From: Martelella radicis
GTDB lineage: Bacteria; Pseudomonadota; Alphaproteobacteria; Rhizobiales; Rhizobiaceae
Direction: 5' to 3'
DNA: 51,040 nt
Assembly: GCF_014196625.1 (NCBI RefSeq)
Contig: NZ_JACIDZ010000022.1
Coordinates: 1-51,040, forward strand
Shown: positions 29,896 to 46,213 of the stretch, one piece after another
Layout of the letters: every line of letters starts with the position of its first letter
Position numbering within the stretch: the first letter of the stretch is position 1
The notes under the pieces: model-generated
Database searches by the model: none
What the model saw: only the letters and a program-made list of their open reading frames with translations
Told to the model about the DNA's origin: nothing
Made by a program: the position numbers and the translations under genes

Positions 29896-29924
29896 TTGCA
29901 CTGAGTATAAAACATACTCATAAT
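29896..29924 (+). promoter_or_regulatory. Promoter with operator filling the spacer (GntR-type regulator gene)
   Basis: TTGCAC (29896-29901), 17 nt, CATAAT (29919-29924). The spacer is almost exactly the palindrome TGAGTAT-AAAAC-ATACTCA (29902-29920). The expected start point is near 29931, the A of the ATG, so the mRNA would be leaderless; no Shine-Dalgarno sequence precedes the gene. Confidence 0.6.
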
Positions 29925-29930
29925 AACCCG

Positions 29931-31022
29931 ATGCAGAGCAAGACAAAACAGATCCTCGCTGATATCGGCAGATGGGTCGACAATAAGATCGCCGAGGCGG
30001 AACCCGGGGAACGTCTCCCGACCATCCGCCACCTGATGCGGGAATTCGGAACCGCACAGCGCACCGTCGAAGCAGCTCTGAGGCCTTTTCTTGATGACGG
30101 GCGGCTGATCTCGCGCCCTGGCGCAGGCATCGTTGTGGCAGGCGAGACGCTGGACGCAACGCAGAACGCTTATGCCGCCGACCTGCTGATTCTCTATCGC
30201 AATTCCGACAGCCGCCTTGCACGCGTGACCCTGCAGGAGGTCGCCGCGCGGCTGAAGAGTGCGGGATCCTCGGTTCTACAACTCGGCTTTTCCGGCGACG
30301 ATCAGGCAATCGACGTGCTGGAGCGGATCGGTCGCTTTCGCGCCTGCCTTATCCAGGTGAATTTCGAAATCCTCACCGTCGCCTTTCTGGCGGCCCTCCA
30401 CCGGCAGGCCGATCACATCGTCATCGACGGCGTTTCGGCAACCGGCATCGATGTCGATGCGATTGGCACCAACTGGCGGGAGGCACTGTCGATCGCCTTC
30501 CGCGCCGTGCGGGAAAACGGCCACGAGAAGATCGCCTTCCTGACCTCTGCCCACCACGCCCGCCAGATCGCCATGGCCCGGCGCGAGTTCGAATTGCTCG
30601 GCAGCACGCTTCCCGATCCAGCACAGCGCTGGCTGATTGAACTGAACGCCCTGCCCGGCAGCTACCAGATCAACGACATCGCCGAGGCGATCGGACGTCA
30701 TGCCGATGACGCGGGTCGGCTCCCCTTTACCGCGCTCATCGTCTGGGGCGTGGTCGAGGGCTTCATTCTCGAGCGCGCGCTTTTCGAACTTGGCCTCGAG
30801 GCCGGGCGGGACCTCAGCGTGATCATGCTCGGCAGCACCGACTTCCAGTCGGAACATCTCGGTCGCTTCGACGTGGTCGGCAACAGCCACGCGGAGAAAC
30901 TCGCCGTGTTCGAGCGGATCATCGCGGAGCGGATCGCCGACAGACCGCACGAACCGCAGACCCATTACCTGCCGATCTCCCATGTGCGCCATGGCTCCGT
31001 CATCGATCTGTCCTCTGATTGA
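29931..31022 (+). CDS. GntR-HTH regulator with LacI-type sugar-binding domain
   Basis: A 363-aa regulator. The N-terminal winged helix (about 8-72) has the GntR pattern PGERLPTIRHLMREFGTAQRTVEAAL. Residues about 80-360 form a periplasmic-binding-protein-like domain, as in LacI proteins, with GHEKIAFLTSAHHA. It therefore probably responds to a small sugar. The gene precedes the oxidoreductase of the sugar locus. TGAGTA/TACTCA-type palindromes occur upstream of it and in the next gap, fitting autoregulation and control of the downstream genes. A leaderless transcript is predicted. Confidence 0.85.
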   Translation: MQSKTKQILADIGRWVDNKIAEAEPGERLPTIRHLMREFGTAQRTVEAALRPFLDDGRLISRPGAGIVVAGETLDATQNAYAADLLILYRNSDSRLARVTLQEVAARLKSAGSSVLQLGFSGDDQAIDVLERIGRFRACLIQVNFEILTVAFLAALHRQADHIVIDGVSATGIDVDAIGTNWREALSIAFRAVRENGHEKIAFLTSAHHARQIAMARREFELLGSTLPDPAQRWLIELNALPGSYQINDIAEAIGRHADDAGRLPFTALIVWGVVEGFILERALFELGLEAGRDLSVIMLGSTDFQSEHLGRFDVVGNSHAEKLAVFERIIAERIADRPHEPQTHYLPISHVRHGSVIDLSSD

Positions 31023-31055
31023 GTACATATGATATTGTAGCCATATATATACTCA
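31020..31055 (+). promoter_or_regulatory. Operator-like TGAGTA/TACTCA pair before the oxidoreductase gene
   Basis: TGAGTA (31020-31025) and TACTCA (31050-31055) repeat the half-sites of 29902-29920 at wider spacing, with TATATA boxes between. TTGAGT at 31019-31024 may be a -35 box. It probably marks the regulated promoter of the catabolic operon. Confidence 0.45.
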
Positions 31056-31101
31056 CATAGCATCCGATGCCGATGACAATGATCAAGTCCAGAGGCGTTG
31101 C

Positions 31102-32367
31102 ATGCTCCACGAGCCGGTCCAGCAAAAAACAACAGGCGTCGCCATTATCGGCGCGGGTGAACGCGGCATCTATTATGTCGGCTCCCGCATGGCCGAAATT
31201 GCCGGCGAAACCGGCTTTCGCGTCGTCGGCGTCTTCGACCGGCTGGAAGACCGCGCGGGCTATGCCGCCGACCACCTGAACGCGCTCTACGGCAAGGCCG
31301 GCGTGCGACACGCAGTGCGCGTCTTTGCAGACCTCGAGGATGCCGTGTCCGACCCCGCCGTCGACCTCGTGGTGGTCACGACCCACACCAACGCGCACCG
31401 CGCCCCGGTCGAAGCCGCGATCGCCGCCGGCAAGCGCGTCTATCTCGACAAGCCGATTTCGGTGACGCTCGAGGATGCCGAGGCCATTCTGGCGGCTGAG
31501 CAGAAGGCCGGCCAGCCAATGCTGATGGCCTTCACCCGGCGTTATGAAAAGCCCTGGGTGGAGACGGTGAAGCTTGCCCATGAAGGCCGCGTCGGCGATC
31601 CGCAGATGATCCTGCTACGCTCGGTCATCCCCTATACGCGCTATCTGCAGCTCTGGCACCGTAAGCAAGCGCTTTCGGGCGGCGCGCTCAACGACAAGTG
31701 CTCGCACCATTTCGACGTGCTGAACTGGGTCGCCGCATCCAAGCCGGTCTCCGTCACCGCCGTCGGCGGCCGCAGCAACGTCTTTCCGCCCGATCCGAAT
31801 GCCCCGGAGCGCTGTTCGCTCTGCGACCGCGACTGTCCCTATCGCCGGCACGAAACCCTCGTCGACCGCTTCGAGGGCGCCGGCGCCGTCGCCAATGCGA
31901 GCTGGAGCGAGGCGGCGCTGATCGAGGACCGCAACGACACCTGCGTCTACCAACCGGGTGCGGATATCGACGACCACGCCATCGTCACCATCCGTTACGC
32001 GAATGGCGTCACGGCCTGTCTGTTCTTCGCCATTTTCGGCCCTTGGGCCGAGGATCAGGAGACGCTTGAGATCGTCGGTTCCTCCGGCCGCATCCGCATG
32101 GAGCGCCATTCCGGCGCGATCGACATCGTCGAGGATTACGGCCGCAAGCACGGCACGCTCGGCTTTACCAACCCGGACCGGACCTCGACCCATTTTGGCG
32201 CAGATCTCGAACTTGTCAGGACGCTTCGCCGCTTCATGGATGGCGAAAACCCGCCGGTCGGCATCGAAGACGGGCTTGCTTCGCTGCGCCTCGTGCTCGC
32301 CGCGCAGAAATCCATGAAGAACGGCGGCATGCCGGTGGACCCGGCAACACAGGAATTTGCCCGATGA
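31102..32367 (+). CDS. Gfo/Idh/MocA family oxidoreductase
   Basis: A 421-aa NAD(P)-dependent sugar oxidoreductase. The Rossmann motif GAGERG is at 17-22, the family EKP-equivalent DKP at 116-118, and the substrate-loop SGGALNDKCSHHFD at 192-205 with the catalytic-type His pair. A Cys cluster (238, 241, 245: CSLCDRDCPY) lies in an insertion seen in part of the family and may bind zinc. The likely substrate is a sugar, sugar acid or inositol-like compound imported by the ABC system downstream. AGAGG precedes the ATG, and its end overlaps the next gene by 4 nt. Confidence 0.9.
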   Translation: MLHEPVQQKTTGVAIIGAGERGIYYVGSRMAEIAGETGFRVVGVFDRLEDRAGYAADHLNALYGKAGVRHAVRVFADLEDAVSDPAVDLVVVTTHTNAHRAPVEAAIAAGKRVYLDKPISVTLEDAEAILAAEQKAGQPMLMAFTRRYEKPWVETVKLAHEGRVGDPQMILLRSVIPYTRYLQLWHRKQALSGGALNDKCSHHFDVLNWVAASKPVSVTAVGGRSNVFPPDPNAPERCSLCDRDCPYRRHETLVDRFEGAGAVANASWSEAALIEDRNDTCVYQPGADIDDHAIVTIRYANGVTACLFFAIFGPWAEDQETLEIVGSSGRIRMERHSGAIDIVEDYGRKHGTLGFTNPDRTSTHFGADLELVRTLRRFMDGENPPVGIEDGLASLRLVLAAQKSMKNGGMPVDPATQEFAR

Positions 32368-33923
32368 CCAGACGCTTTCCCGAACGCCTGACCCCGCTCG
32401 CCAACAGGCTGGGCCTGCAGCCGCTTTATGGCGACATCCATAACCACTCGGCGCTGTCCTATGGCCATGGACGGCTGGAGGACGCGCTGGCGCGGGCCGC
32501 ACTGCAGCTCGATTTCGTCTCCGTCACCGGCCATGCCGCCTGGCCGGACATGCCGGTCGACGTGCCGGAGGTGGCGCATATCGTCGACTTCCACGTCAAG
32601 GGCTTTGCGAAGCTGAAGGCCAACTGGAAGAGCCATTTCGAGACGCTTTCGGCGTATGAAAATCCGGGACATTTCGCCGTTTTTCCCGGCTACGAAATTC
32701 ATTCCTGTGCACATGGCGACTACACCATCGTCTACGCCGACCTTGATGTCGCGGAGCCGGAACTGGCCGATACACCGGAAGACCTGAAGACCGCGCTGGC
32801 CGCCGCCAAGGGTGATCGCGCGCTCGCCTTCCCGCATCACATCGGCTACCGCCAGGGCGCGCGCGGCATCAACTGGGACACGTTCGATCCGGCCCTGTCG
32901 CCCTTTGTCGAAATGTTTTCCATGCATGGCTGCGCGGAAGAATCAGAGTCCGAACGCTCCTATCTGCATTCCATGGGTCCGGTGAACGGCGCCTCGACCA
33001 TGCGCGCGGGGCTGAAGCGCGGCGCGGTCTTCGGCATTGTCGGCAATACCGATCACCACTCCGCGTTTCCCGGCTCCTACGGTCATGGCCGCATGGCGGT
33101 CTATGCCGAAGCCGATGACCGCGACGCAATCTTCGCGGCCATGCGCGCGCGGCGCACCAACGCGCTGACCGGTGACAATATTCATCTTCTGACGGCAATC
33201 GGCGACACGGTTCAGGGCGGCATCATCGCCCCTTCGGACAAGGCCACACTCGATATCGAGGCCATCGGCGGCGGCTTCATCGACGTCATCGACGTCTTCC
33301 GCAACGGCGCGCTTTTCGCCCGCATATCGCCCGAACTCGAGCCTGCCCCGGTCGACCCCGGCGACGGCGCGACGACGGAGACCATTCTCCATGTCGAGCT
33401 TGGCTGGGGCGCGCGCGGCAAGAGCCACGACTGGGCGGGAACACTCAACCTCGAAGGAGGCGAGATTCTGAGCGTGGAGCCGCGTTTCCGCGGCGCCGAA
33501 ATCGTCTCACCGCTGGAAGGCGAGGATGAGGCAGCAGTGCTGCCGACGCTCGACCTCGCCGACGGCAAGGTGACCTTTTCCGTCACCGCCGCGGCCAACC
33601 CCAACAATGTCACCTCGGCCACGCAAGGCTTTGCCATCCGGCTCAGGACGAAGCCGGGTGCGAGGCTGAAGGCCGTGCTTTCCGGCAAACAGCTCGACAT
33701 CGCGATCGACGACCTTTTCGAGGGCGCCGTCTCGGGCAATCTCGGCCCGATCGACAGCCCCGCCTACCGGTTCCACGCCCTGCCCCGCCCCCACCAGTGG
33801 CAGTGGCAGGGCCGCGTGGCCCTCGGCGCGCTCGAAGCCGGAGAGAACATCTATGTGCGACTGCGCGAGAAAACCGGCCAGATGGCCTGGACCTCGCCGA
33901 TTTTCTGCAGAAAGGAGGCGTAA
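32364..33923 (+). CDS. PHP/CehA-like metal-dependent hydrolase
   Basis: A 519-aa protein whose N-terminal half is PHP-like: DIHNHS at 24-29 (metal-binding His26, His28), later VTGHA, FPHHI and GNTDHHS with further His/Asp ligands. The C-terminal half (about 300-519) is beta-rich and not recognised. It is similar in style to CehA/McbA and DUF3604 proteins, which hydrolyse phosphate or carbamate esters in a few cases. It has no signal peptide and starts within the stop of the oxidoreductase gene, so it should work on the same imported substrate. The actual bond cleaved is unknown. Confidence 0.75.
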   Translation: MTRRFPERLTPLANRLGLQPLYGDIHNHSALSYGHGRLEDALARAALQLDFVSVTGHAAWPDMPVDVPEVAHIVDFHVKGFAKLKANWKSHFETLSAYENPGHFAVFPGYEIHSCAHGDYTIVYADLDVAEPELADTPEDLKTALAAAKGDRALAFPHHIGYRQGARGINWDTFDPALSPFVEMFSMHGCAEESESERSYLHSMGPVNGASTMRAGLKRGAVFGIVGNTDHHSAFPGSYGHGRMAVYAEADDRDAIFAAMRARRTNALTGDNIHLLTAIGDTVQGGIIAPSDKATLDIEAIGGGFIDVIDVFRNGALFARISPELEPAPVDPGDGATTETILHVELGWGARGKSHDWAGTLNLEGGEILSVEPRFRGAEIVSPLEGEDEAAVLPTLDLADGKVTFSVTAAANPNNVTSATQGFAIRLRTKPGARLKAVLSGKQLDIAIDDLFEGAVSGNLGPIDSPAYRFHALPRPHQWQWQGRVALGALEAGENIYVRLREKTGQMAWTSPIFCRKEA

Positions 33924-34093
33924 TCGGACCAGTCAGACTTCGCGGGTCTTCGTACCGGCGTGAACCAGGCAATCGGAGCGGAATATCGCCGGATTGTCAT
34001 CAGAAAGGAAAGGCCGACCGAAACAGGCGGTATTCCAACAAGCGGGAACTTTTCAAAACCGGTCCGCGAAAAGGGCCGGAGGGAGAACAGGCA

Positions 34094-35362
34094 ATGAAGC
34101 ATTTCAAGACATTCACCGGCGTGCTGCTGGCCGCCAGCGCCCTGATGGCGGTCTCGGCCGGCGCGGTCGAACTCAACATCGTCCATGGCGCGATCGGCAA
34201 GGACAACGAGGTCCTGCGCAAGGAACTCGACCGCTATCAGGAGAAGACCGGCAACACGGTCAACATCGTCTCCATGCCGGAATCGACCACCGACCAGTTC
34301 GGTCAGTACAAGCTCTGGCTTTCGGCCAAGTCGCCGGATATCGACGTCTACCGCATCGACGTCATCGGCGCGCCGCAGCTCGCCGATCACTTCGTCGACC
34401 TGACCGAGGCAACCGCCGACATCATCGACCAGTTCGTTCCGGCATCGGTCGAATCCCAGACCGTCGACGGCAAGCTCGTCGCGCTGCCGATGTTCCTCGG
34501 CGCGCCGGCGCTCTATTACCGCAAGGACCTTCTGGAAAAATACGACCGTCCGGTGCCCGAAACCTGGGACGAGATGACCGAGACCGCGAAGATCATCATG
34601 GATGGCGAGCGGGCCGAGGGCAACGGCGACATGTGGGGTTTCGTCTTCCAGGGCGCGCCCTATGAGGGGCTGACCTGCGACGGCCAGGAATGGATCTACT
34701 CCTATGGCGGCGGCCGCATCGTCGAACTCGACGGCTCCATCGCCATCAACAACCCTGAAGCCGCCGAAGCGCTCAACATGGCGAAATCCTGGGTCGGCAC
34801 GATCGCGCCGCAGGGCGTGCTCAACTACATGGAAGAGGATGCGCGCGGCGTGTTCCAGTCGGGCAATGCCGTGTTCATGCGCAACTGGAACTATGCCTAT
34901 GCGCTGGCAGACGGTCCGGATTCCCCGGTCAAGGGCAAGTTCGACGTGACCACGCTGCCCGTCGGCGCAGAGGGCGACAGCTCGGCGGCAACGCTCGGCG
35001 GCTGGCACCTGGCGGTTTCCAAATATTCGCCGAACCAGGAAGAGGCGATCGAGTTGGTGAAATACCTCAACAACTTCGAGAACCAGAAGGAACGCGCCAT
35101 CGAGACCTCGCGTCCGCCGACCGTGACCGCCGTCTACGACGATCCGGAAGTGGCAGAAGCCCAGCCCTTCATTCCGCGCTGGAAACCGGTCGTGCTCAAC
35201 GCCCTGCCGCGTCCTTCCGCCGCGACCAAGCGCAAGTATAACGAGGTATCCTCGGAATTCTGGACCGCCGTGCACGATACGCTTTCGGGCGACGGCACCG
35301 CCGAGCAGAACCTCGCCAAGCTGGAAGCAAAGCTGAAGCGCCTGCGCGGCAACGGCTGGTAA
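34094..35362 (+). CDS. Sugar ABC transporter substrate-binding protein
   Basis: A 422-aa periplasmic protein of the family 1 (maltose/trehalose-type) extracellular solute-binding group. Residues 1-24 form a Sec signal peptide without a lipobox (MKHFKTFTGVLLAASALMAV). Family segments include SPDIDVYRIDVIGAPQLADHF, the PLFYN-like PALYYRKDLLEKY and GAVFMRNWNYAY. The substrate is inferred to be a small oligo- or monosaccharide, possibly sulfated given the downstream sulfatase. GGAGG lies 10 nt upstream of the ATG. A strong hairpin follows the stop and may raise its level over the permeases. Confidence 0.9.
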   Translation: MKHFKTFTGVLLAASALMAVSAGAVELNIVHGAIGKDNEVLRKELDRYQEKTGNTVNIVSMPESTTDQFGQYKLWLSAKSPDIDVYRIDVIGAPQLADHFVDLTEATADIIDQFVPASVESQTVDGKLVALPMFLGAPALYYRKDLLEKYDRPVPETWDEMTETAKIIMDGERAEGNGDMWGFVFQGAPYEGLTCDGQEWIYSYGGGRIVELDGSIAINNPEAAEALNMAKSWVGTIAPQGVLNYMEEDARGVFQSGNAVFMRNWNYAYALADGPDSPVKGKFDVTTLPVGAEGDSSAATLGGWHLAVSKYSPNQEEAIELVKYLNNFENQKERAIETSRPPTVTAVYDDPEVAEAQPFIPRWKPVVLNALPRPSAATKRKYNEVSSEFWTAVHDTLSGDGTAEQNLAKLEAKLKRLRGNGW

Positions 35363-35370
35363 GATCGGCC

Positions 35371-35401
35371 GGCGCCGCGCGGCAACCGACCGCGCGGCGC
35401 C
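35371..35401 (+). promoter_or_regulatory. Intercistronic hairpin after binding-protein gene
   Basis: GGCGCCGCGCGG, 7-nt loop, CCGCGCGGCGCC: a perfect 12-bp GC stem 9 nt after the stop. There is no U-tract, so it is more likely an mRNA-stabilising element than a terminator. Confidence 0.7.
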
Positions 35402-35432
35402 GTCTCAACCAATGACAAGAAGGGAACGGAAC

Positions 35433-36373
35433 ATGGCAGAACCGGTCGAAAAATCGACCCTGTCACAACAGCGGGTGCTGTCCGCCTGGGTCTTCCTGGC
35501 GCCGATGCTCGCGGTGCTTGCCGTGGTCGCGGTCTATCCGCTGGTCAAGACGATCTATTTCGGCTTCACCGACGCATCGATCGATTTTCCCGGCCAGGCG
35601 CAATGGGTCGGCTTCCGCAACTATCTCGAATATCTCGATTATGGCGGCGGCGAAGGCGAATATTACGGCCTTCTGGCCGATCCGGACTGGTGGCAGGCCG
35701 TCTGGAACACGCTGCGTTTCACCTTCTTCTCGGTGCTGTTCGAAACCATTTTCGGGATGATCATCGCGCTGGTGCTCAACACCCAGTTCTTTGGCCGCTC
35801 GCTGGTGCGCGCCGCAGTGCTGATCCCCTGGGCTATTCCCACCATCGTCTCGGCCAAGATGTGGGCCTGGATGATGCATGACCAGTTCGGCATTTTGAAC
35901 GACATGCTGATGAAGCTGCATATCATCGCCGAGCCCGTCGCCTGGACGGCCGATCCAGATACCGCGATGCTTGCCGTGCTGATCGTCGACATCTGGAAGA
36001 CCACGCCCTTCATGGCGCTTCTGATCCTCGCCGGCCTGCAGATGGTGCCGAAGGACATGTATGAGGCGGCAAAGCTCGACGGCATTCATCCCGTCCGCGT
36101 GTTCCGCAAGGTCACCCTGCCGCTGATCATGCCGGCCGTGCTGGTGGCAATCGTCTTTCGCGCGCTCGATGCGCTGCGCGTGTTCGACATCGTCTACGTG
36201 CTGACCCCCAACAACGCCAATACGGCCACGATGTCGGTGTTCGCGCGCGAGAACCTGTTCGATTTCGATCGTTTCGCCTATGGCTCGGCGGCCTCCACGC
36301 TGCTGTTCCTGATCATTGCGCTTCTGACGATCGGCTTCATCCGCGCCACCCGCATGAACCTTGGAGGCGACAG

Positions 36374-36377
<4 letters not shown>
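35433..36377 (+). CDS. Sugar ABC transporter permease (MalF type)
   Basis: A 314-aa inner-membrane subunit with about six helices. The EAA loop that docks the ATPase is MYEAAKLDGIHPVRVFRKVTLPLIMP. The start at 35433 is preferred over an in-frame ATG at 35412 because of AGGGA spacing. It overlaps the next permease gene by 4 nt (ATGA). Confidence 0.92.
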
Positions 36378-37207
<830 letters not shown>

Positions 37208-37211
37208 TCTC

Positions 37212-38213
37212 ATGGCCTCCATCGAACTCAACAAGATCTGCAAGTCCTTCGGCCATGTCGAGGTGCTGAAGGATATCGACCTCAGCCTCGAAAAGGGCGA
37301 GTTCATTGTCTTCGTCGGGCCGTCGGGCTGCGGCAAGTCCACGCTTTTGCGGCTGATCGCCGGGCTTGAGGATATCTCCGGCGGCGATCTGATGATTGAC
37401 GGCGAGCGCGTCAACAACGTGCTGCCGGCAAAGCGCGGCATCTCCATGGTGTTCCAGTCCTATGCGCTTTATCCGCACATGACGGTCTATGAGAACATGG
37501 CCTTCGGTCTGGAACAGGCTAAGCTCGACAAGAGCGAGGCCGACAAGCGCATCCGCGAGGCGGCCGAAATGCTGCAGATCACCCCCTATCTCGAGCGCAA
37601 GCCCCGCCAGCTTTCCGGCGGCCAGCGCCAGCGCGTTGCCATCGGCCGGGCGATCACCCGCCAACCGCGCATCTTCCTGTTCGACGAGCCGCTGTCGAAC
37701 CTCGACGCAGCCTTGAGGGTCGATACCCGCATCGAGATCGCGGCACTGCACAAGCGCATGGCGGGCGTCACCATGATCTATGTGACTCACGACCAGGTCG
37801 AGGCGATGACGCTTGCCGACCGGATCGTGGTGCTGAATGCCGGACGGGTGGAGCAGGTCGGGACGCCGATGGAGCTCTACATGAAGCCCGCCAGCCGCTT
37901 CGTCGCCGAATTCATCGGCTCGCCGCGCATGAATGTGATCGAGGGCGCGATCGCGGAGAATTTCGGTGCGGCCGCCTGCGGCATCCGGCCGGAACACCTC
38001 GCGATCTCGCGTGAAGACGGCCGCTGGGCCGGCAAAGTGCTGCTTTCAGAGGAACTTGGGAGCGATACTTATATCCATGTGGAAACCGATGACGCCGGCA
38101 TGCTGAATGTGCGCGCGCCCGGCGCGCAGGATTTTTCAGCCGGCGAGACGGTCTTTGTGACGCCGGACGAGGCGGCGCTGCACCGTTTCGACGAGGCGGG
38201 CGTCGCGGTTTGA
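37212..38213 (+). CDS. Sugar ABC transporter ATPase (MalK/UgpC type)
   Basis: A 333-aa ATPase that powers the permease pair. Walker [10 protein letters not shown] is at 36-44, the Q-loop Gln at 82, the signature LSGGQ at 134-138 and Walker B IFLFDEP at 154-160. The TOBE regulatory domain (about 240-333) is present but shorter than in MalK (about 370 aa). The MalK-like switch [15 protein letters not shown] is intact. Confidence 0.95.
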
Positions 38214-38226
38214 GGGGGCGAGCGAT

Positions 38227-39201
38227 ATGAACAGCAGCTTCAGGCCATCCGACGCGCCGCGCCCGATCGCGGTCATCGGCAATGCCAATCTCGATCTCGT
38301 CACCGGCAGCATCGATGACTGGCCGGACTGGGGCACGGAGGTCTTTCTGGAAAAGTCTGACTTCCGCATCGGCGGCTCGGCGGCCAATACCGCGCTCGTG
38401 CTGCAGCGCCTCGGCCAGACCGTCGGCCTCGTCTCGGCAACCGGCAGCGATGCCGCGGGCGCAATGATCACGCGACAGTTCTCCGGCCCGCTCGACAGGG
38501 TCGAAACCCGGCCGGGTCCGACCTCGATTTCCGTCGGCGTGCTGCAGACCGGCGGCGAGCGCAGTTTCTTTTCCACCAACGGCCATCTCGACGGGCTCGA
38601 TGCTGCCTACTTTTCCAGCGCCCTTGAGGACTGGCCGCTGAAAGGCGCGATCGCGCTCGTTTCCGGCGGTTTCGCCCTGCCGGGACTCTTCGACGAGCAT
38701 ACGGCCTTCCTTGAGCGACTGAGGGCGCGCGGCGCGACCATCGCCATTGACCCCGGCTGGCCGGGCGAAGGCTGGAGCGACCTCGCGATCGAAAAGGCCC
38801 GCGAATGGATTGGCCTTGCCGACCATATTCTTCTCAACGACAAGGAAGTCCTTGGGCTTTCCGGCGAGAAGACCGTCCATGCCGCCTGCCGCGCGCTCAG
38901 CCCGTTCATGCGGTCGGACGCGGTGCTCGTGGTCAAGCGCGGCGCCGACGGTGCTGCCTGCTACCATGCCCGCGACTACCTGGTCGAACATGCCGAGCCG
39001 CTCGCGGTGATCGACACGGTCGGCGCCGGCGATGCCTTCAATGCCGGCTATCTGAGCGCCGTCGCGGAAGCTGCCTCCGACCGTGCGGCGCTGCGGCGCG
39101 GCATTGATGTGGCCGGCGCGGTGATCAGCGAATTTCCCCGCAGTTCCGCCCCCCTCAGCCTTCAACGGAGCCAGCAATCATGCGCAATATCCTCCTTCTG
39201 A
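38227..39201 (+). CDS. PfkB family carbohydrate kinase
   Basis: A 324-aa ribokinase-like kinase with the N-terminal GG motif region (FRIGGSAANTALVLQRLG, 47-64) and the C-terminal DTVGAGDAFNAG at 263-274 holding catalytic Asp 269. It phosphorylates a sugar taken up by the adjacent ABC system, thereby trapping it. The exact sugar is unknown; an amino sugar would fit the next gene. Its end overlaps the sulfatase gene by 22 nt, so the two are tightly coupled. GAGGGGG precedes the ATG. Confidence 0.88.
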   Translation: MNSSFRPSDAPRPIAVIGNANLDLVTGSIDDWPDWGTEVFLEKSDFRIGGSAANTALVLQRLGQTVGLVSATGSDAAGAMITRQFSGPLDRVETRPGPTSISVGVLQTGGERSFFSTNGHLDGLDAAYFSSALEDWPLKGAIALVSGGFALPGLFDEHTAFLERLRARGATIAIDPGWPGEGWSDLAIEKAREWIGLADHILLNDKEVLGLSGEKTVHAACRALSPFMRSDAVLVVKRGADGAACYHARDYLVEHAEPLAVIDTVGAGDAFNAGYLSAVAEAASDRAALRRGIDVAGAVISEFPRSSAPLSLQRSQQSCAISSF

Positions 39202-40580
39202 TCGCCGACGATCTGGGGCGCATGACCGGCTGCTACGGCGAGACGGCGATCGCGACGCCCAATATCGACAGTCTTGCCGCGAGCGGCACGCGCTTCGACA
39301 TGGCCTTCACCTCGACCGCCTCGTGTTCCGCCAGCCGTTCGGTGATCTATACGGGGCTCCACACCCATGAGACCGGTCAATACGGCCTCAACCACGACCA
39401 CCACCATTTCATGACCTTCGATCATGTGGACACCGCGCCGGCGCTTCTGAACGCAGCCGGCATGAAGACCGGGATCATCGGCAAGGTTCATGTCGGGCCT
39501 GACGCGGTCTATCCCTGGCAGGTGCGGGAGGAAAGCTGGGAACGCGACGTGCGCTGGTCGGCAGACCGCGCGGCCGCCTTTTTCGACAGCGCCAAGGCCG
39601 AGCAAAAAACCTTCTTCCTCACCATCGGCTTCATCGATCCGCACCGCGATGAAACCCGCGGCGGCTTCGGCAATGACCGCGTCTATCCCGGCGTAGAGGA
39701 TCGCGTCTTCGCGCCGGAAGATGTCACCGTGCCGCCCTTCCTGACCGACCTGCCGGAAGTGCGCCAGGAGCTTGCCGACTATTACCGTTCGATTGACCGC
39801 CTCGACCAGGGCGTCGGCATGGTGCTGGATGAACTGGAGCGTTCCGGCCTTGCCGATGACACGCTCGTCGTCTTCCTCTCCGACAATGGCTCGCCCTTTC
39901 TGAATTCCAAGACCACGCTTTACGATGCCGGCGTGCACCTTCCGCTTATCATGCGCAGACCCGGTGGGCGCGCTGGCGTTGAAAACCCCAATCTCGTATC
40001 CTTCACCGATATTTTGCCGACCTTTCTCGACTGGACCGGCCACAAGCCCCCGCCCGGCGCGCGCAAGGGCCGTTCGCTGCTGCCGATCCTTGACAGCGAG
40101 ACACTTGAGGACGACTGGCAGGCCGTGTTCGGCTCGCATACCTTCCACGAGGTGACGAATTACTGGCCGACGCGCTTCATGCGCACCACGCGCTACAAAT
40201 ATCACCGCAATGTCGCCTGGCAGCTCGATTTCCCCTTTTCCGGCGACCTCTACGGCTCGCTGACCTGGGAGGGGATCCGCAATCAGGACCCGGCGATGAT
40301 CGGCGGTCGCTCGGTGAAGGACTATGTCCGCCGTCAGCCGGAGGAGCTCTATGATCTGGAGACCGATCCGCACGAGGTCAACAATCTGGCCGGCGACCCC
40401 GGCCACCGCGACCGCCTGCTTGAAATGCGGGCAGCGACCGAGGCCTGGCAGAAGGAGACCGGCGACCCCTGGCTCTACCGCGACGGCGTATCGCTCAGAG
40501 CCATCGAAAAGCACCTCGAAGCCGGCTTGGCCGTACCCGACCGGTTCGACTTCGACCCGGACAATCCGGGTTCTCGCTAG
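39180..40580 (+). CDS. Cytoplasmic formylglycine sulfatase, heparan N-sulfatase (sulfamidase)-like
   Basis: A 466-aa type I sulfatase. The formylglycine motif C49-S-A-S-R53 and metal ligands D10, D11 and a later SDNG are present. Beyond the general fold it matches animal N-sulfoglucosamine sulfohydrolase in long segments, for example TGLHTHETGQYGLNHDHHHF, GMKTGIIGKVHVGP, IDPHRDETRGGF, QAVFGSHTFHEVT and ELYDLETDPHEVNNL. Sulfamidases release sulfate from the amino group of glucosamine. No signal peptide is seen, so it should act in the cytoplasm after import. A formylglycine-generating enzyme is not in the window. Another sulfated sugar cannot be excluded. Confidence 0.85.
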   Translation: MRNILLLIADDLGRMTGCYGETAIATPNIDSLAASGTRFDMAFTSTASCSASRSVIYTGLHTHETGQYGLNHDHHHFMTFDHVDTAPALLNAAGMKTGIIGKVHVGPDAVYPWQVREESWERDVRWSADRAAAFFDSAKAEQKTFFLTIGFIDPHRDETRGGFGNDRVYPGVEDRVFAPEDVTVPPFLTDLPEVRQELADYYRSIDRLDQGVGMVLDELERSGLADDTLVVFLSDNGSPFLNSKTTLYDAGVHLPLIMRRPGGRAGVENPNLVSFTDILPTFLDWTGHKPPPGARKGRSLLPILDSETLEDDWQAVFGSHTFHEVTNYWPTRFMRTTRYKYHRNVAWQLDFPFSGDLYGSLTWEGIRNQDPAMIGGRSVKDYVRRQPEELYDLETDPHEVNNLAGDPGHRDRLLEMRAATEAWQKETGDPWLYRDGVSLRAIEKHLEAGLAVPDRFDFDPDNPGSR

Positions 40581-40660: not shown

Positions 40661-41344
40661 ATGGCACGCGACACCGAGACCAATCCCCAGAACAGCACTC
40701 CGAGCGCCGGGTATACGACCCGCAGCGCCGGCGACCGCATTCTCATGCAACTGAAAATGCATGGCGGGCTGACGGCGGCCGAGCTCGGAAAGCGCCTCGG
40801 AACCACGGGCGAAGCCGCGCGCCAGCAACTGGCCCGGCTTGCAGAAACGGGGCTCGTTGAGCCCGAAAGCCGGCGTTCCGGCGTCGGCCGCCCGCGCCAG
40901 GTGTGGAGCCTGACGCCAGCCGGCGAGGCGCGTTTTCCCGACACCCATGCGACGCTGACGGTGGAGCTTCTGGAGAGCATTCGCGCCGAGCTTGGCGAAG
41001 CCGCGCTCGAGACGGTGATTGCCGCGCGCGAACGGCGCACCGGCGGCCTTTACAGGACCGCGATGGAGGGCTGCGACAGCCTGGATGAAAAGCTCGCCGT
41101 GCTGACCCGGCTGCGCTCTGCCGAGGGCTATATGGCGGACTGGTACGCGGCGGAAGACGGCACGCGCCGCTTTGTCGAGCACCATTGCCCGATCTGCGCC
41201 GCCGCCACCGCCTGCCAGGGGTTCTGCCGCTCGGAACTCGCGATCTTCCGCCAGCTTCTCGGCCCCTCCGTCGACATCCGCCGCGACGAGCACATCGTCA
41301 AGGGCAGCCGGCGCTGCACCTATGTCGTGAGCGAGACCCGATAG
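40661..41344 (+). CDS. SufR-like winged-helix regulator with Cys cluster
   Basis: A 227-aa regulator. The N-terminal winged helix (about 25-90; GGLTAAELGKRLGTTGEAARQQL) is ArsR/DeoR-like. The C-terminal part has C176, C179, C185, C189 and C219 (HHCPICAAATACQGFCRSEL, later RRCTYVV), the pattern of Fe-S sensing regulators related to SufR. It likely senses iron-sulfur or redox state. Its promoter holds a palindrome whose near copy lies at the sod-ferredoxin promoter nearby, suggesting a small regulon. The TPR gene follows 20 nt later. Confidence 0.82.
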   Translation: MARDTETNPQNSTPSAGYTTRSAGDRILMQLKMHGGLTAAELGKRLGTTGEAARQQLARLAETGLVEPESRRSGVGRPRQVWSLTPAGEARFPDTHATLTVELLESIRAELGEAALETVIAARERRTGGLYRTAMEGCDSLDEKLAVLTRLRSAEGYMADWYAAEDGTRRFVEHHCPICAAATACQGFCRSELAIFRQLLGPSVDIRRDEHIVKGSRRCTYVVSETR

Positions 41345-44096: not shown

Positions 44097-46046
44097 CTAC
44101 GGCGTAACGATATTGAACCAGAACTCGAATGTGTCGAGCAGAGCCACGAAATTTTCGACCTGCTGCCGGTCGCCCTCGACCATCACCGACCCGTCGTCGA
44201 TTGCCCCCATCATGGTGACCTGGCCGAGATTGATACTATCAAGCACCGAACGGTCGAGCGTCACCGTCGCGTCGACATCGTCGCTCTGGCTGTCGAGCGT
44301 GTAGTTCATCACGCCGTTGGTGACGGTGACGACGAATTCCTCGCCGACATCCGGCATGACGAAGTTAAGCGCGATCTCCTGGCCGGCCGCTTCCGGATGG
44401 TTCAGCCGGACAGCGAGATAGTCGAGATAGGTACCGAGCGGCAGGTTGCGGACAATATCCGGCGAGGCAGTGGCCGGCGTCGCGGCTTCGATAACACCGT
44501 CACGCAGTTCCTTGGCGCCAGACAGATAGAAATTCCGCCAGGGGCCACTTTCGGCCTGATAGCCCATCTGCGCCAGGGCATCGGCCAGGAAGTTCCTGGC
44601 CTCCGCATTGTCCGGATCGGCAAAGACCACATGATTGAGAGCTGTGGCGACCCAGCGGTAATTGCCTGCCTCATAATCGGCTCTCGCCTTCTCGATCACG
44701 GCATCCGCACCGCCGGCATATTCCACGAACTTCGTGCCTTCCTCGACCGGCGGCAGCTCATTGAGCTCGGAGGGGTTGCCTGAGAACCAGCCGAAGTAAA
44801 GCTGGTACTGCGCCTTGGCATTGTGGCTGACACTGCCATAATAACCGCGATTGGAGAATGTCTGCGCCAGGCTGTCGGGAAGCGTCAGCTCCTCGGCAAT
44901 CTCCAGCATGGTCTCACCGCTATTGGCAAGACGAAGCGTCTCGTCGTGGATATAGCGGTAGGTATCGCGCTGCCCCTTCCAGAATTCGATGATTTCTTCG
45001 TTGCCCCATGTCGGCCAGTGATGGCTGCCGAAGCTCACCTCGACCTCGCCGCCGAAACGGTTGATCGTATCATTGATATATTTGGCGAAAAGATCGCCAG
45101 AACGTACCTTGGCGCCGCGCAGCGTGTAGAGATTGTGCAGGGTGTGGTTGATTTCCTCGGCCTGCATCATCGCCTTGAACTGAGGAATATAGAACATCAG
45201 TTCCGCTGGCGCCTCCGCCCCCGGCGTATTCAGGAAGATCATCTCGATGCCGTCGATCGTCTCGGTCTGCGGCGTTTCGCTGATCGTCAGCGTCGGCTCC
45301 ACGATGGTCACCGTGCCGGCTGCCGTCGTCGTGCCAAGACCGGAACCAAGCGAGCCTTCCGGTCCTTTTTCGACAACGTTGCCATACATGTAGGAGGCCC
45401 GCCTGCTCATCGTGTTGCCGGCAATCAGGTTCTCGCTGACTGCCTCCTCGAAAAAGCCGACGGGCGCGACGACGGGAATGCCGTTCGCCTCCATCTCCTC
45501 AGGCGTCGTGATCCCTTTGACGCCGCCGAAATGGTCGACATGGCTATGGGTGAAAATGATGCCGGTGACGGGCAGATCCTCCACATGTTCCCGCAAGAGT
45601 GCAAGCCCGGCCGCAGATGTCTCGTCGGCCGTCAGCGGATCGACAACGATCCAGCCGTTCTCGCCGCGGATGAAGCTCATTACCGCCAGGTCAAAGCCGC
45701 GCACCTGGTAGATGCTGCCCTCGACCACTTCGAACAGGCCGTGAATGGCATTGAGTTCGCTCTGGCGCCATAGGCTCGGATTGGCCGTCGGCGGCGCATC
45801 ACCTTCAAGAAAATCGAAGGCAGCCATGTCATATACGGGGGTGCCATCCGGCATGGTGATTTGGTCGCTGTCGAGCGTCGCGATCAGTCCGCGACGCGCA
45901 TTTTCAAAATCTGTGTCATCGTCGAAAGGCAGATAATCGAGCAAGGCATCATTAGCCTCGATGGTCGTCTGTGTCGCGTCTTGCGCGTTTGCGGTGGCGG
46001 CCAGACCCAGAGCGACACCGCTCACCGCCAATAAAAATCGAAACAT
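44097..46046 (-). CDS. Secreted alkylsulfatase, SdsA/BDS1 type (MBL fold)
   Basis: A 649-aa zinc-dependent type III sulfatase that hydrolyses primary alkyl sulfates such as dodecyl sulfate. The N-terminus is a Sec signal peptide ending ANAQ near residue 22. The metallo-beta-lactamase motif THSHVDH is at about 166-172, followed by the family block AEAPAELMFYIPQ. A helical dimerisation domain and a C-terminal SCP2-like lipid-binding domain complete the family layout. ATG at 46046 is chosen over the adjacent GTG because of AGGAAG spacing. It is divergent from a Crp/Fnr regulator. Confidence 0.93.
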   Translation of the reverse strand: MFRFLLAVSGVALGLAATANAQDATQTTIEANDALLDYLPFDDDTDFENARRGLIATLDSDQITMPDGTPVYDMAAFDFLEGDAPPTANPSLWRQSELNAIHGLFEVVEGSIYQVRGFDLAVMSFIRGENGWIVVDPLTADETSAAGLALLREHVEDLPVTGIIFTHSHVDHFGGVKGITTPEEMEANGIPVVAPVGFFEEAVSENLIAGNTMSRRASYMYGNVVEKGPEGSLGSGLGTTTAAGTVTIVEPTLTISETPQTETIDGIEMIFLNTPGAEAPAELMFYIPQFKAMMQAEEINHTLHNLYTLRGAKVRSGDLFAKYINDTINRFGGEVEVSFGSHHWPTWGNEEIIEFWKGQRDTYRYIHDETLRLANSGETMLEIAEELTLPDSLAQTFSNRGYYGSVSHNAKAQYQLYFGWFSGNPSELNELPPVEEGTKFVEYAGGADAVIEKARADYEAGNYRWVATALNHVVFADPDNAEARNFLADALAQMGYQAESGPWRNFYLSGAKELRDGVIEAATPATASPDIVRNLPLGTYLDYLAVRLNHPEAAGQEIALNFVMPDVGEEFVVTVTNGVMNYTLDSQSDDVDATVTLDRSVLDSINLGQVTMMGAIDDGSVMVEGDRQQVENFVALLDTFEFWFNIVTP

Positions 46047-46213
46047 CACAATTGCTTCCTCATGTTTTCATTGTTAAATCCAGTAGAAACCGCAACCGCA
46101 CCGATTGCACCGGAATTGTCGTTCGCATCCAGCTTGTTTTAGTGTATGTTTAACCAATGCTTCCGACCTCCTCATCTGAGGATATTGATGAAATAAGCTG
46201 CGGAGGCGGCGCC

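What the first reader, a model, noticed from the sequence alone, without database searches (positions are those of the whole stretch)
29931..40580. Sugar-uptake operon ending in a cytoplasmic heparan N-sulfatase-like enzyme
The sulfatase (39180-40580) shares long segments with animal sulfamidase, not merely the C-x-[AP]-S-R motif, and has no signal peptide. It is translationally coupled to a PfkB kinase and sits behind an ABC sugar importer, a MocA oxidoreductase and a PHP-like hydrolase. The simplest model is import of a free N-sulfated (or O-sulfated) amino sugar, desulfation inside the cell and phosphorylation. Established: family of each protein. Inference: the joint pathway. No polysaccharide lyase is present, so small scavenged sugars rather than whole heparan are implied. 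This is the best candidate for an undescribed system.
Basis: partly seen in the sequence, partly recalled or inferred. Interest (0 to 1): 0.82.

Follow-up and report, generated by a model that had tools for sequence, protein, structure and literature searches.

The report
Cytoplasmic sugar-sulfatase import operon
Some alphaproteobacteria share a nine-gene set that probably takes up a small sulfated sugar and removes its sulfate inside the cell with a relative of the human enzyme missing in Sanfilippo A disease, but whether it cuts the same nitrogen-sulfate bond is open.

Summary
Window 29931-40580 carries a GntR/LacI-type regulator, MocA oxidoreductase, PHP-fold hydrolase, binding protein, two permeases, ATPase, PfkB kinase and an S1 sulfatase without export signal. 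Human sulfamidase (SGSH) is its nearest solved relative by sequence (295 against 136 bits) and fold (TM 0.82).

Added here: (1) gene order is conserved in other alphaproteobacteria (15 of 27 loci hold all nine genes, three hold eight). (2) Inverted repeats TGAGTA...TACTCA lie upstream of the regulator and before MocA; the second is conserved. (3) In 5 of 20 readable loci a GlmS/NagB-II-like SIS gene precedes the kinase, which favours an amino sugar. (4) Arg282, reported as special to sulfamidase, is Lys, and its partner Asp399 is Ser, in all 21 alphaproteobacterial sequences compared; 40 of 40 bacterial rows have Lys. Some exported relatives sit beside galactose genes. (5) The binding protein resembles maltose/trehalose binders.

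Verdict: uptake and cytoplasmic desulfation of a sugar sulfated at carbon 2 is the best reading. N-sulfated hexosamine is the leading but unproven substrate; 2-O-sulfated hexose is the main rival. New variant of a known kind.

The parts
29902..29920 (.). Inverted repeat TGAGTATAAAACATACTCA just upstream of the regulator gene; probable operator
   Evidence: pattern expected 0.01 times in the window, found twice; three places in the whole 5-Mb genome. Not found in exact form before the regulator in the loci
29931..31022 (+). GntR-type DNA-binding domain joined to a LacI-type sugar-sensing domain: dedicated regulator (inferred)
   Evidence: PF00392 31 bits; PF13377 23.5 bits, below its cut-off of 26.5
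31020..31055 (.). Second probable operator: TGAGTA and TACTCA half-sites 24 bp apart in the regulator-MocA gap
   Evidence: half-site cores invariant in 14 of 14 aligned gaps; exact pattern with the same 36-bp length in 12 of the 27 loci
31102..32367 (+). Gfo/Idh/MocA NAD(P)-dependent oxidoreductase; sugar dehydrogenase or NAD-dependent glycosidase (role inferred)
32364..33923 (+). PHP-fold metal-dependent hydrolase (DUF3604/CehA-McbA-like) with a C-terminal beta-rich part
34094..35362 (+). Periplasmic sugar-binding protein of the alpha-disaccharide type, with signal sequence (by eye)
35412..36377 (+). ABC permease 1
36374..37207 (+). ABC permease 2
37212..38213 (+). ABC ATPase, UgpC/MalK type
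   Evidence: NF008653 452.9 bits, above its cut-off of 432
38227..39201 (+). PfkB-family sugar kinase, no NCBIfam equivalog reached
   Evidence: present in 17 of 20 readable loci
39180..40580 (+). Formylglycine-type S1 sulfatase of the SGSH/S1_8 group without export signal; Lys at SGSH position 282, Ser at 399

Best explanation
A dedicated uptake-and-breakdown operon for a small, C2-sulfated sugar, most likely an N-sulfated hexosamine that arrives as an alpha-glycoside. The GntR/LacI-type regulator sits on TGAGTA...TACTCA operators and is released by the sugar (inferred). The ABC importer brings the glycoside in with its sulfate on (inferred from protein families and the missing export signal). 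MocA oxidises the sugar at a ring carbon, or acts as an NAD-dependent glycosidase, and the PHP enzyme hydrolyses the product (inferred, weakest step). The sulfatase removes the sulfate at position 2 in the cytoplasm (position inferred from its S1_8 relatives). The freed sugar is phosphorylated by the PfkB kinase and, where the SIS gene is present, isomerised and deaminated to a sugar phosphate; elsewhere a housekeeping enzyme would do this (inferred). Shown: gene content, conserved order, repeats at the promoters, fold families, catalytic residues. About 0.75 for import plus cytoplasmic desulfation of a small sulfated sugar; about 0.4 that the bond cut is N-S.
For: Nine-gene synteny; operator-like repeats; SGSH and then S1_8A/B/C are the nearest solved structures by fold, SGSH then S1_8A by sequence, and the characterised S1_8 enzymes I read about act at carbon 2 (GlcN-2-N-sulfate, Gal-2-sulfate, Xyl-2-sulfate: PMC5066984, PMC10154612, PMC12549532; passages, one section). 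Of the ten active-site residues of SGSH nine are kept; H368 and D401, named in the SGSH docking model, are kept. SIS gene with the SQSG loop, Glu, His and C-terminal Lys of GlmS in 5 of 20 loci. No export signal seen in alphaproteobacterial members against leader-like stretches in 16 of 18 distant ones (by eye). FGE genes present. Binding-protein type.
Against: Lys282/Ser399 instead of the sulfamidase Arg/Asp pair. Lys-type relatives lie beside galactose-type genes or beside MocA plus 3-keto-disaccharide hydrolase, and no scanned neighbour was a heparin enzyme. The SIS gene is absent from 15 of 20 readable loci, including the two Martelella loci and the window, and its NCBIfam scores are far below cut-off (two of five scanned). 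The kinase is absent in 3 of 20. SGSH is on a long branch at an unresolved fork, not the sister of the alphaproteobacterial clade. No substrate was tested.
Confidence: 0.5

Rival explanations
1. The substrate is a 2-O-sulfated neutral hexose or its alpha-glycoside, such as galactose-2-sulfate from red-algal galactan, and the enzyme is an ordinary S1_8 O-sulfatase that works in the cytoplasm.
For: Lys at position 282 as in O-sulfatases, including the Gal-2-sulfatase S1_8A (by eye in the alignment); Bacteroidota homologs about as close to the window enzyme as SGSH is (40-45% against 42%) beside GLAA-B-type genes (L080, L083) or galactokinase and GalT (L088); several host genera are known from the sea (hosts, habitat recalled).
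Against: A GlmS/NagB-II-like SIS gene in 5 of 20 clusters is hard to explain for a neutral hexose; H368/E369 shared with SGSH; no galactose gene among the families that recur in the alphaproteobacterial loci at the thresholds.
Confidence: 0.3
2. The substrate is an amino sugar sulfated on oxygen (3-O or 6-O GlcN/GalN), desulfated inside the cell.
For: SIS gene plus kinase point to an amino sugar; Lys282 is the O-sulfatase state.
Against: The S1_8 enzymes I found described act at carbon 2, and the first 19 structures in the fold search are all SGSH or S1_8.
Confidence: 0.12
3. The sulfatase is a passenger for sulfur supply: the operon feeds on an alpha-glycoside and the sulfatase only scavenges sulfate.
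For: PfkB and SIS vary among loci; L045 has PfkB plus sulfatase without the ABC genes upstream.
Against: The sulfatase closes the cluster and overlaps the kinase and is present in each locus by the way the loci were found; operator-like repeats in the genome only at this cluster plus one doubtful place.
Confidence: 0.08

Closest known systems
N-sulfoglucosamine sulfohydrolase (human SGSH; Pedobacter heparinus Nsulf, SulfAtlas S1_8)
   Same: To SGSH: fold (TM 0.82), 42-43% identity, formylglycine motif, metal and sulfate site residues, H368, E369, D401. The P. heparinus sequence was not seen
   Different: Arg282 is Lys, Asp399 is Ser; no export signal; in an ABC-import operon, not lysosomal (SGSH) or in a periplasmic heparin locus (P. 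heparinus; PMC10154612, passages)
S1_8A/B/C galactose-2-sulfatases of the lambda-carrageenan locus (PMC12549532, passages and one section)
   Same: Next nearest structures; Lys at the 282 position (S1_8A row, by eye)
   Different: 21-23% identity; the HEVT stretch around H368/E369 is not shared in the S1_8A alignment (by eye); part of a polysaccharide cascade with GH150, GH110 and GH2
Choline-O-sulfate pathway, BetC, in alphaproteobacteria (PMC12442346, passages)
   Same: Small sulfated solute imported and desulfated by a sulfatase (cytoplasmic site recalled)
   Different: Other sulfatase (window enzyme 120.8 bits against the choline-sulfatase cut-off of 433) and no sugar genes
Bifidobacterium breve GlcNAc-6-sulfate utilisation (growth data in passages of PMC6045583; the sulfatase cluster itself recalled)
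   Same: A sulfated amino sugar used as carbon source; intracellular desulfation (recalled)
   Different: 6-O-sulfate, N-acetylated sugar, needs NagA1 or NagA2
Sulfoquinovose clusters: SmoF binding protein, GH188 NAD-dependent sulfoquinovosidase (PMC10755693, passages and part of one section)
   Same: Binding protein related to SmoF (211 bits); MocA profile hits the GH188 structure 8qc2; GH188 occurs in Roseobacter-clade hosts
   Different: A sulfonate, not a sulfate ester or sulfamate; MocA here is equally close to aldose-aldose oxidoreductase

Membership tests
Formylglycine-dependent S1 sulfatase | C-x-[AP]-S-R motif, metal and sulfate-site residues (SGSH D31 D32 C70 R74 K123 H125 H181 D273 N274) | tested here: met
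   Identical in P0001 and the 20 other alphaproteobacterial rows that cover them (the PDB row prints the matured residue 70 as S). Among the 13 Bacteroidota rows one has Thr at 123 and five have His at 274
Formylglycine-dependent S1 sulfatase | FGE to mature the enzyme | tested here: met
   Two FGE-sulfatase family genes in the genome, 230.7 and 132.5 bits, cut-off 23.3
S1_8 subfamily | Nearest characterised sequences and structures are S1_8 | tested here: met
   SGSH then S1_8A/B/C by Foldseek; SGSH then S1_8A by phmmer. The SulfAtlas classifier itself was not available
N-sulfoglucosamine sulfohydrolase (sulfamidase) | Arg at 282, paired with Asp399 | tested here: not met
   Lys and Ser in 21 of 21 alphaproteobacterial rows (L038 and L045 not scored). 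Whether the proven bacterial sulfamidase of P. heparinus has Arg could not be looked up (paper not held), so the feature may belong to animal enzymes only
N-sulfoglucosamine sulfohydrolase (sulfamidase) | Residues that bind the sugar in the docking model: K123, H368, D401 (main chain) | tested here: met
   roles from the figure legend in PMC4014121
N-sulfoglucosamine sulfohydrolase (sulfamidase) | Releases sulfate from GlcNS | not testable with these tools
   Needs purified enzyme
GlcN-6-P deaminase / GlmS-type SIS (accessory gene of five relatives) | SQSG phosphate loop, Glu, His, C-terminal Lys | tested here: met
   All five proteins, aligned to the genome's own GlmS; the roles of Glu488, His504 and Lys603 of E. 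coli GlmS are recalled
GlcN-6-P deaminase / GlmS-type SIS (accessory gene of five relatives) | NCBIfam equivalog score | tested here: not met
   Two of five scanned: NagB-II 47.6 bits (L033) and 24.8 bits (L044) against a cut-off of 430; GlmS 41.7 and 27.3 against 418
NAD-dependent glycosidase (GH188/GH109 type) for MocA | Catalytic residues and activity | tested here: inconclusive
   Profile hits 5a02 (81.3 bits) and 8qc2 (80.9 bits) about equally; the conserved Lys, Asp and His positions fit dehydrogenases too (recalled)
PHP-fold hydrolase | Fold similarity to PHP structures | tested here: met
   3e38 E 5e-7, 2anu E 2e-5, TMt up to 0.65; model pTM 0.83, mean pLDDT 75
Alpha-disaccharide binding protein | Close relation to solved maltose/trehalose binders | tested here: met
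   405 bits to 6jai (ligand not named in the table), 305 to MalE3 6dtq, 215 to trehalose/maltose binder 1eu8; ligand of the window protein untested

The most novel reading that the evidence does not exclude
A so far undescribed route in alphaproteobacteria in which N-sulfated hexosamine glycosides (heparan-like fragments) are imported intact by an ABC transporter, opened by a MocA/PHP oxidative step, and N-desulfated in the cytoplasm by a lysine-type sulfamidase that does without the arginine thought to mark N-S bond cleavage.
Probability: 0.3. Interest if true: 0.72.

Novelty: new variant of a known kind. Interest (0 to 1): 0.52.

Why it matters
If right, some alphaproteobacteria carry a compact pathway that takes sulfated sugars up before desulfating them, so surveys that look for secreted sulfatases could overlook it, and it comes with a regulator and operator that can be used to find the substrate. 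It also gives a direct test of whether Arg282 is needed for cutting sulfamates: PMC4014121 (passage) announced an Arg282Lys mutant of the human enzyme as future work, and here is a natural Lys form of the same fold.

Tried and rejected
Rejected or unproductive: (a) Finding the P. heparinus sulfamidase to see whether it has Arg or Lys at 282: its paper is not held; 20 Bacteroidota regions around polysaccharide-lyase (PF14099) hits held no close SGSH-type sulfatase (one weak hit, L109, 93 bits). The question stays open. (b) A wider regulon: the third operator-like place (C32:8898-8924) lies at the start of a helix-turn-helix frame near a transposase-like frame (by eye), so I do not count it. (c) Heparinase II/III-type genes in the genome: three PF07940 hits, none on the window's contig; their specificity was not tested. 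(d) Recurrent extra genes around the cluster: only the SIS family recurred in three or more loci at the thresholds. (e) Amadori-type (FrlB/FrlD) reading of SIS plus PfkB: for the L033 protein the deglycase 3eua scores lower (27.7 bits) than GlmS/NagB-II structures (38.5-41.1 bits); the top hit, 7kqa (42.9 bits), is labelled FecR. (f) The AlphaFold sulfatase model is poor at the pocket (residues 46-79, 238-251, 321-328 and 349-361 under pLDDT 50), so no pocket comparison was made from it.

Limits and rows dropped before counts: L038 (frames split, left as it is) and L045 (cut off) were not scored at position 282; L031 (sulfatase only) and L045 are not among the 20 loci readable between ATPase and sulfatase. 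Matches above the E limits were not examined, and at most four candidate places per genome were scored. Paper searches list only part of their hits (20 of 27, 18 of 18, 20 of 71, 10 of 559, 12 of 23, 12 of 24).
Full report
WHAT IS THERE. The window carries a tight run of nine genes on the + strand from 29931 to 40580: regulator, MocA, PHP, binding protein, two permeases, ATPase, PfkB kinase, sulfatase. The binding protein starts at 34094; the longer ORF listed from 33797 overlaps the PHP gene in another frame. Distances between neighbours are 79, -4, 170, 49, -4, 4, 13 and -22 nt. Two contigs fetched by name match contigs of genomes that the genome search calls 'same genus': G001 with Martelella mediterranea IOP_24 and G010 with M. 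lutilitoris GH2-6 (equal contig lengths and positions), so the window is from a Martelella.

THE SULFATASE. Human sulfamidase SGSH is its nearest solved relative by sequence, 295 bits against 136 for the next, S1_8A, and by fold: TM 0.81-0.82 to 4miv/4mhx, then S1_8A/B/C at 0.63-0.69 (model mean pLDDT 71.6, poor at the pocket). The genome has eight S1 sulfatase hits; the other seven are 21-28% identical to SGSH in the alignment. SulfAtlas puts SGSH and the Pedobacter heparinus N-sulfamidase in S1_8 (PMC5066984, passages; PMC10154612, passages). The lambda-carrageenan S1_8A/B/C enzymes are assigned to galactose-2-sulfate, and their authors note a xylose-2-sulfatase elsewhere in S1_8 (PMC12549532, passages and one section). 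So the characterised members I read about act at carbon 2, on nitrogen or oxygen.

THE ARGININE TEST. PMC4014121 (passages, one from its abstract) reports that a lysine conserved in O-sulfatases is Arg282 in SGSH, held by Asp32 and Asp399. In the window enzyme and the other alphaproteobacterial orthologs compared (21 of 21 rows; L038 and L045 not scored) the residues are Lys and Ser; H368, E369 and D401 are kept. In total 40 of 40 bacterial rows have Lys: these 21, six rows from the five distant loci and 13 Bacteroidota sequences (from the 13 of 395 genomes with a match at E <= 1e-110). This weakens the claim that the enzyme is an N-sulfatase, but does not settle it: the proven bacterial sulfamidase of P. 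heparinus could not be read, so I do not know whether Lys is compatible with N-S cleavage.

WHERE THE RELATIVES SIT. I scanned 26 chosen neighbours in 12 of the 13 Bacteroidota loci (all but L082; not every neighbour) with Pfam. Six loci showed a sugar context: GLAA-B-type genes in L080 and L083 (the link of GLAA-B to GH110 galactosidases is recalled), galactokinase signature plus GalT in L088, MocA plus 3-keto-disaccharide hydrolase in L089, L090 and L091. Six did not in the neighbours scanned: L081, L084, L085, L086, L087, L092. None of the 26 was a heparin enzyme. The distant locus L041 also has a MocA gene near its sulfatase. In the tree the 21 alphaproteobacterial rows form one clade (100/100), while SGSH hangs on a long branch from an open fork (with the tool's own long-branch warning); the likeness to the animal enzyme is real but not exclusive.

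EXPORT. The alphaproteobacterial sulfatases start at the core strand; none of the 19 frames printed shows a signal peptide (by eye; L022, L025, L026 not printed). Of the 18 distant homologs printed, 16 have an N-terminal stretch that reads like a Sec, lipoprotein or Tat leader (by eye); L042 does not and L046 is unclear. The alphaproteobacterial form is therefore best read as cytoplasmic.

CONSERVATION. Of the 27 loci found in 84,980 species genomes (the scan uses two short conserved peptides, so others may be missed), 15 hold all nine genes in order (L038 with split frames), three hold eight without PfkB (L023, L024, L029), two are cut by a contig end but agree as far as they go (L028, L037), one is too short (L031), one has kinase plus a cut-off sulfatase without the ABC genes upstream (L045), and five distant ones lack the cluster. 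Record titles name Martelella, Oricola, Oceaniradius, Roseitalea, Afifellaceae, Phyllobacteriaceae, Rhizobiaceae, Thioclava, Tropicimonas, Roseibaca, Epibacterium, Rhodobacteraceae and unnamed alphaproteobacteria; that several of these genera are marine is recalled. The cluster is patchy, judged by the sulfatase: 7 of 121 genomes in the relatives sample (own included), all within the genus, where 7 of 13 have it; 3 of 397 in an order sample, own included; only the own genome of 385 in a class sample. Patchiness with fixed gene order suggests transfer as a block (inference).

AN EXTRA GENE POINTS TO AN AMINO SUGAR. Between ATPase and kinase, 5 of the 20 loci in which this interval can be read (L022, L030, L033, L037, L044) hold a protein of about 340 residues of the SIS family. 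Two of the five were scanned: the best but weak NCBIfam hits are GlcN-6-P deaminase NagB-II for L033 and GlmS for L044; solved relatives of the L033 protein include GlmS and a GlcN-6-P deaminase. Aligned with the genome's own GlmS all five keep the SQSG loop, the Glu of LKLKE, the His of KHGP and the C-terminal Lys (catalytic roles recalled). Together with C2 sulfation this favours a 2-N-sulfated hexosamine. The window genome lacks the gene in the cluster but has another SIS protein alignable with GlmS (C5:199336-200046) and two Glucosamine_iso (NagB-type) hits.

OTHER PARTS. The binding protein is closest to the 6jai group (405 bits), then MalE3 (305), a trehalose/maltose binder (215) and SmoF (211), which suggests an alpha-disaccharide or alpha-glycoside. 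The MocA profile hits aldose-aldose oxidoreductase and 8qc2 about equally; 8qc2 is the NAD-dependent sulfoquinovosidase FlSqgA (PMC10755693, passages and part of one section). PHP has the PHP fold. The kinase reaches no equivalog cut-off and its profile hits ribokinase-family structures of mixed specificity.

OPERATORS. TGAGTA-N(5-25)-TACTCA occurs twice in the window, against 0.01 expected, and at three places in the whole genome with none for the reversed control. The site in the regulator-MocA gap is conserved: half-site cores are invariant in 14 of 14 aligned gaps and the exact 36-bp form is in 12 of the 27 loci. The site before the regulator was not found in exact form elsewhere.

KNOWN OR NOT. 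Searches for Martelella with sulfatase (no paper), for N-sulfoglucosamine, alphaproteobacteria and S1_8, for cytoplasmic sulfatase with Roseobacter and ABC transporter, and searches gave no description of this operon in the titles and abstract starts listed; the lists are partial and the library holds open-licence papers only. Import of a sulfated small molecule followed by desulfation has precedents (choline-O-sulfate, passages of PMC12442346; growth of B. breve on GlcNAc-6-sulfate, passages of PMC6045583, internal desulfation recalled). Hence: new variant of a known kind.

VERDICT. Real, conserved and probably regulated as a unit. Import and cytoplasmic desulfation of a C2-sulfated glycoside is the best reading; N-sulfohexosamine leads (about 0.4) over 2-O-sulfated hexose (about 0.3).

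Noticed in passing
window 44100-46049 (-): An alkylsulfatase-type protein (Alkyl_sulf_dimr 202.5 bits, Alkyl_sulf_C, metallo-beta-lactamase domain) 3.5 kb downstream on the other strand: a second, unrelated kind of sulfatase in the window.
   Followed up: partly
window 40661-41344 (+): SufR-like regulator directly after the sulfatase, below the SufR cut-off (112.5 against 178.8 bits); it did not recur in the related loci at the thresholds.
   Followed up: partly
L045 8610-10036: Kinase plus cut-off sulfatase without the ABC genes upstream, beside a FAS1-dehydratase-region protein: the pair may move on its own.
   Followed up: partly
L037 7268-9738: ParA/ParB-like frames downstream of the cluster suggest a plasmid location in this Rhodobacteraceae MAG (by eye).
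   Followed up: no
L038: A record titled Marinicella sp. W31 carries a cluster 75-97% identical to the window's with split frames: probably a misnamed, error-rich Martelella-type assembly.
   Followed up: no
L089-L092: Bacteroidota SGSH-type sulfatases with Tat-like leaders (by eye); L089-L091 have MocA and 3-keto-disaccharide hydrolase genes nearby, and a second sulfatase-like frame lies near in all four (BLAST; Pfam only for L089 and L092): a possible sulfated 3-keto-glycoside pathway.
   Followed up: partly
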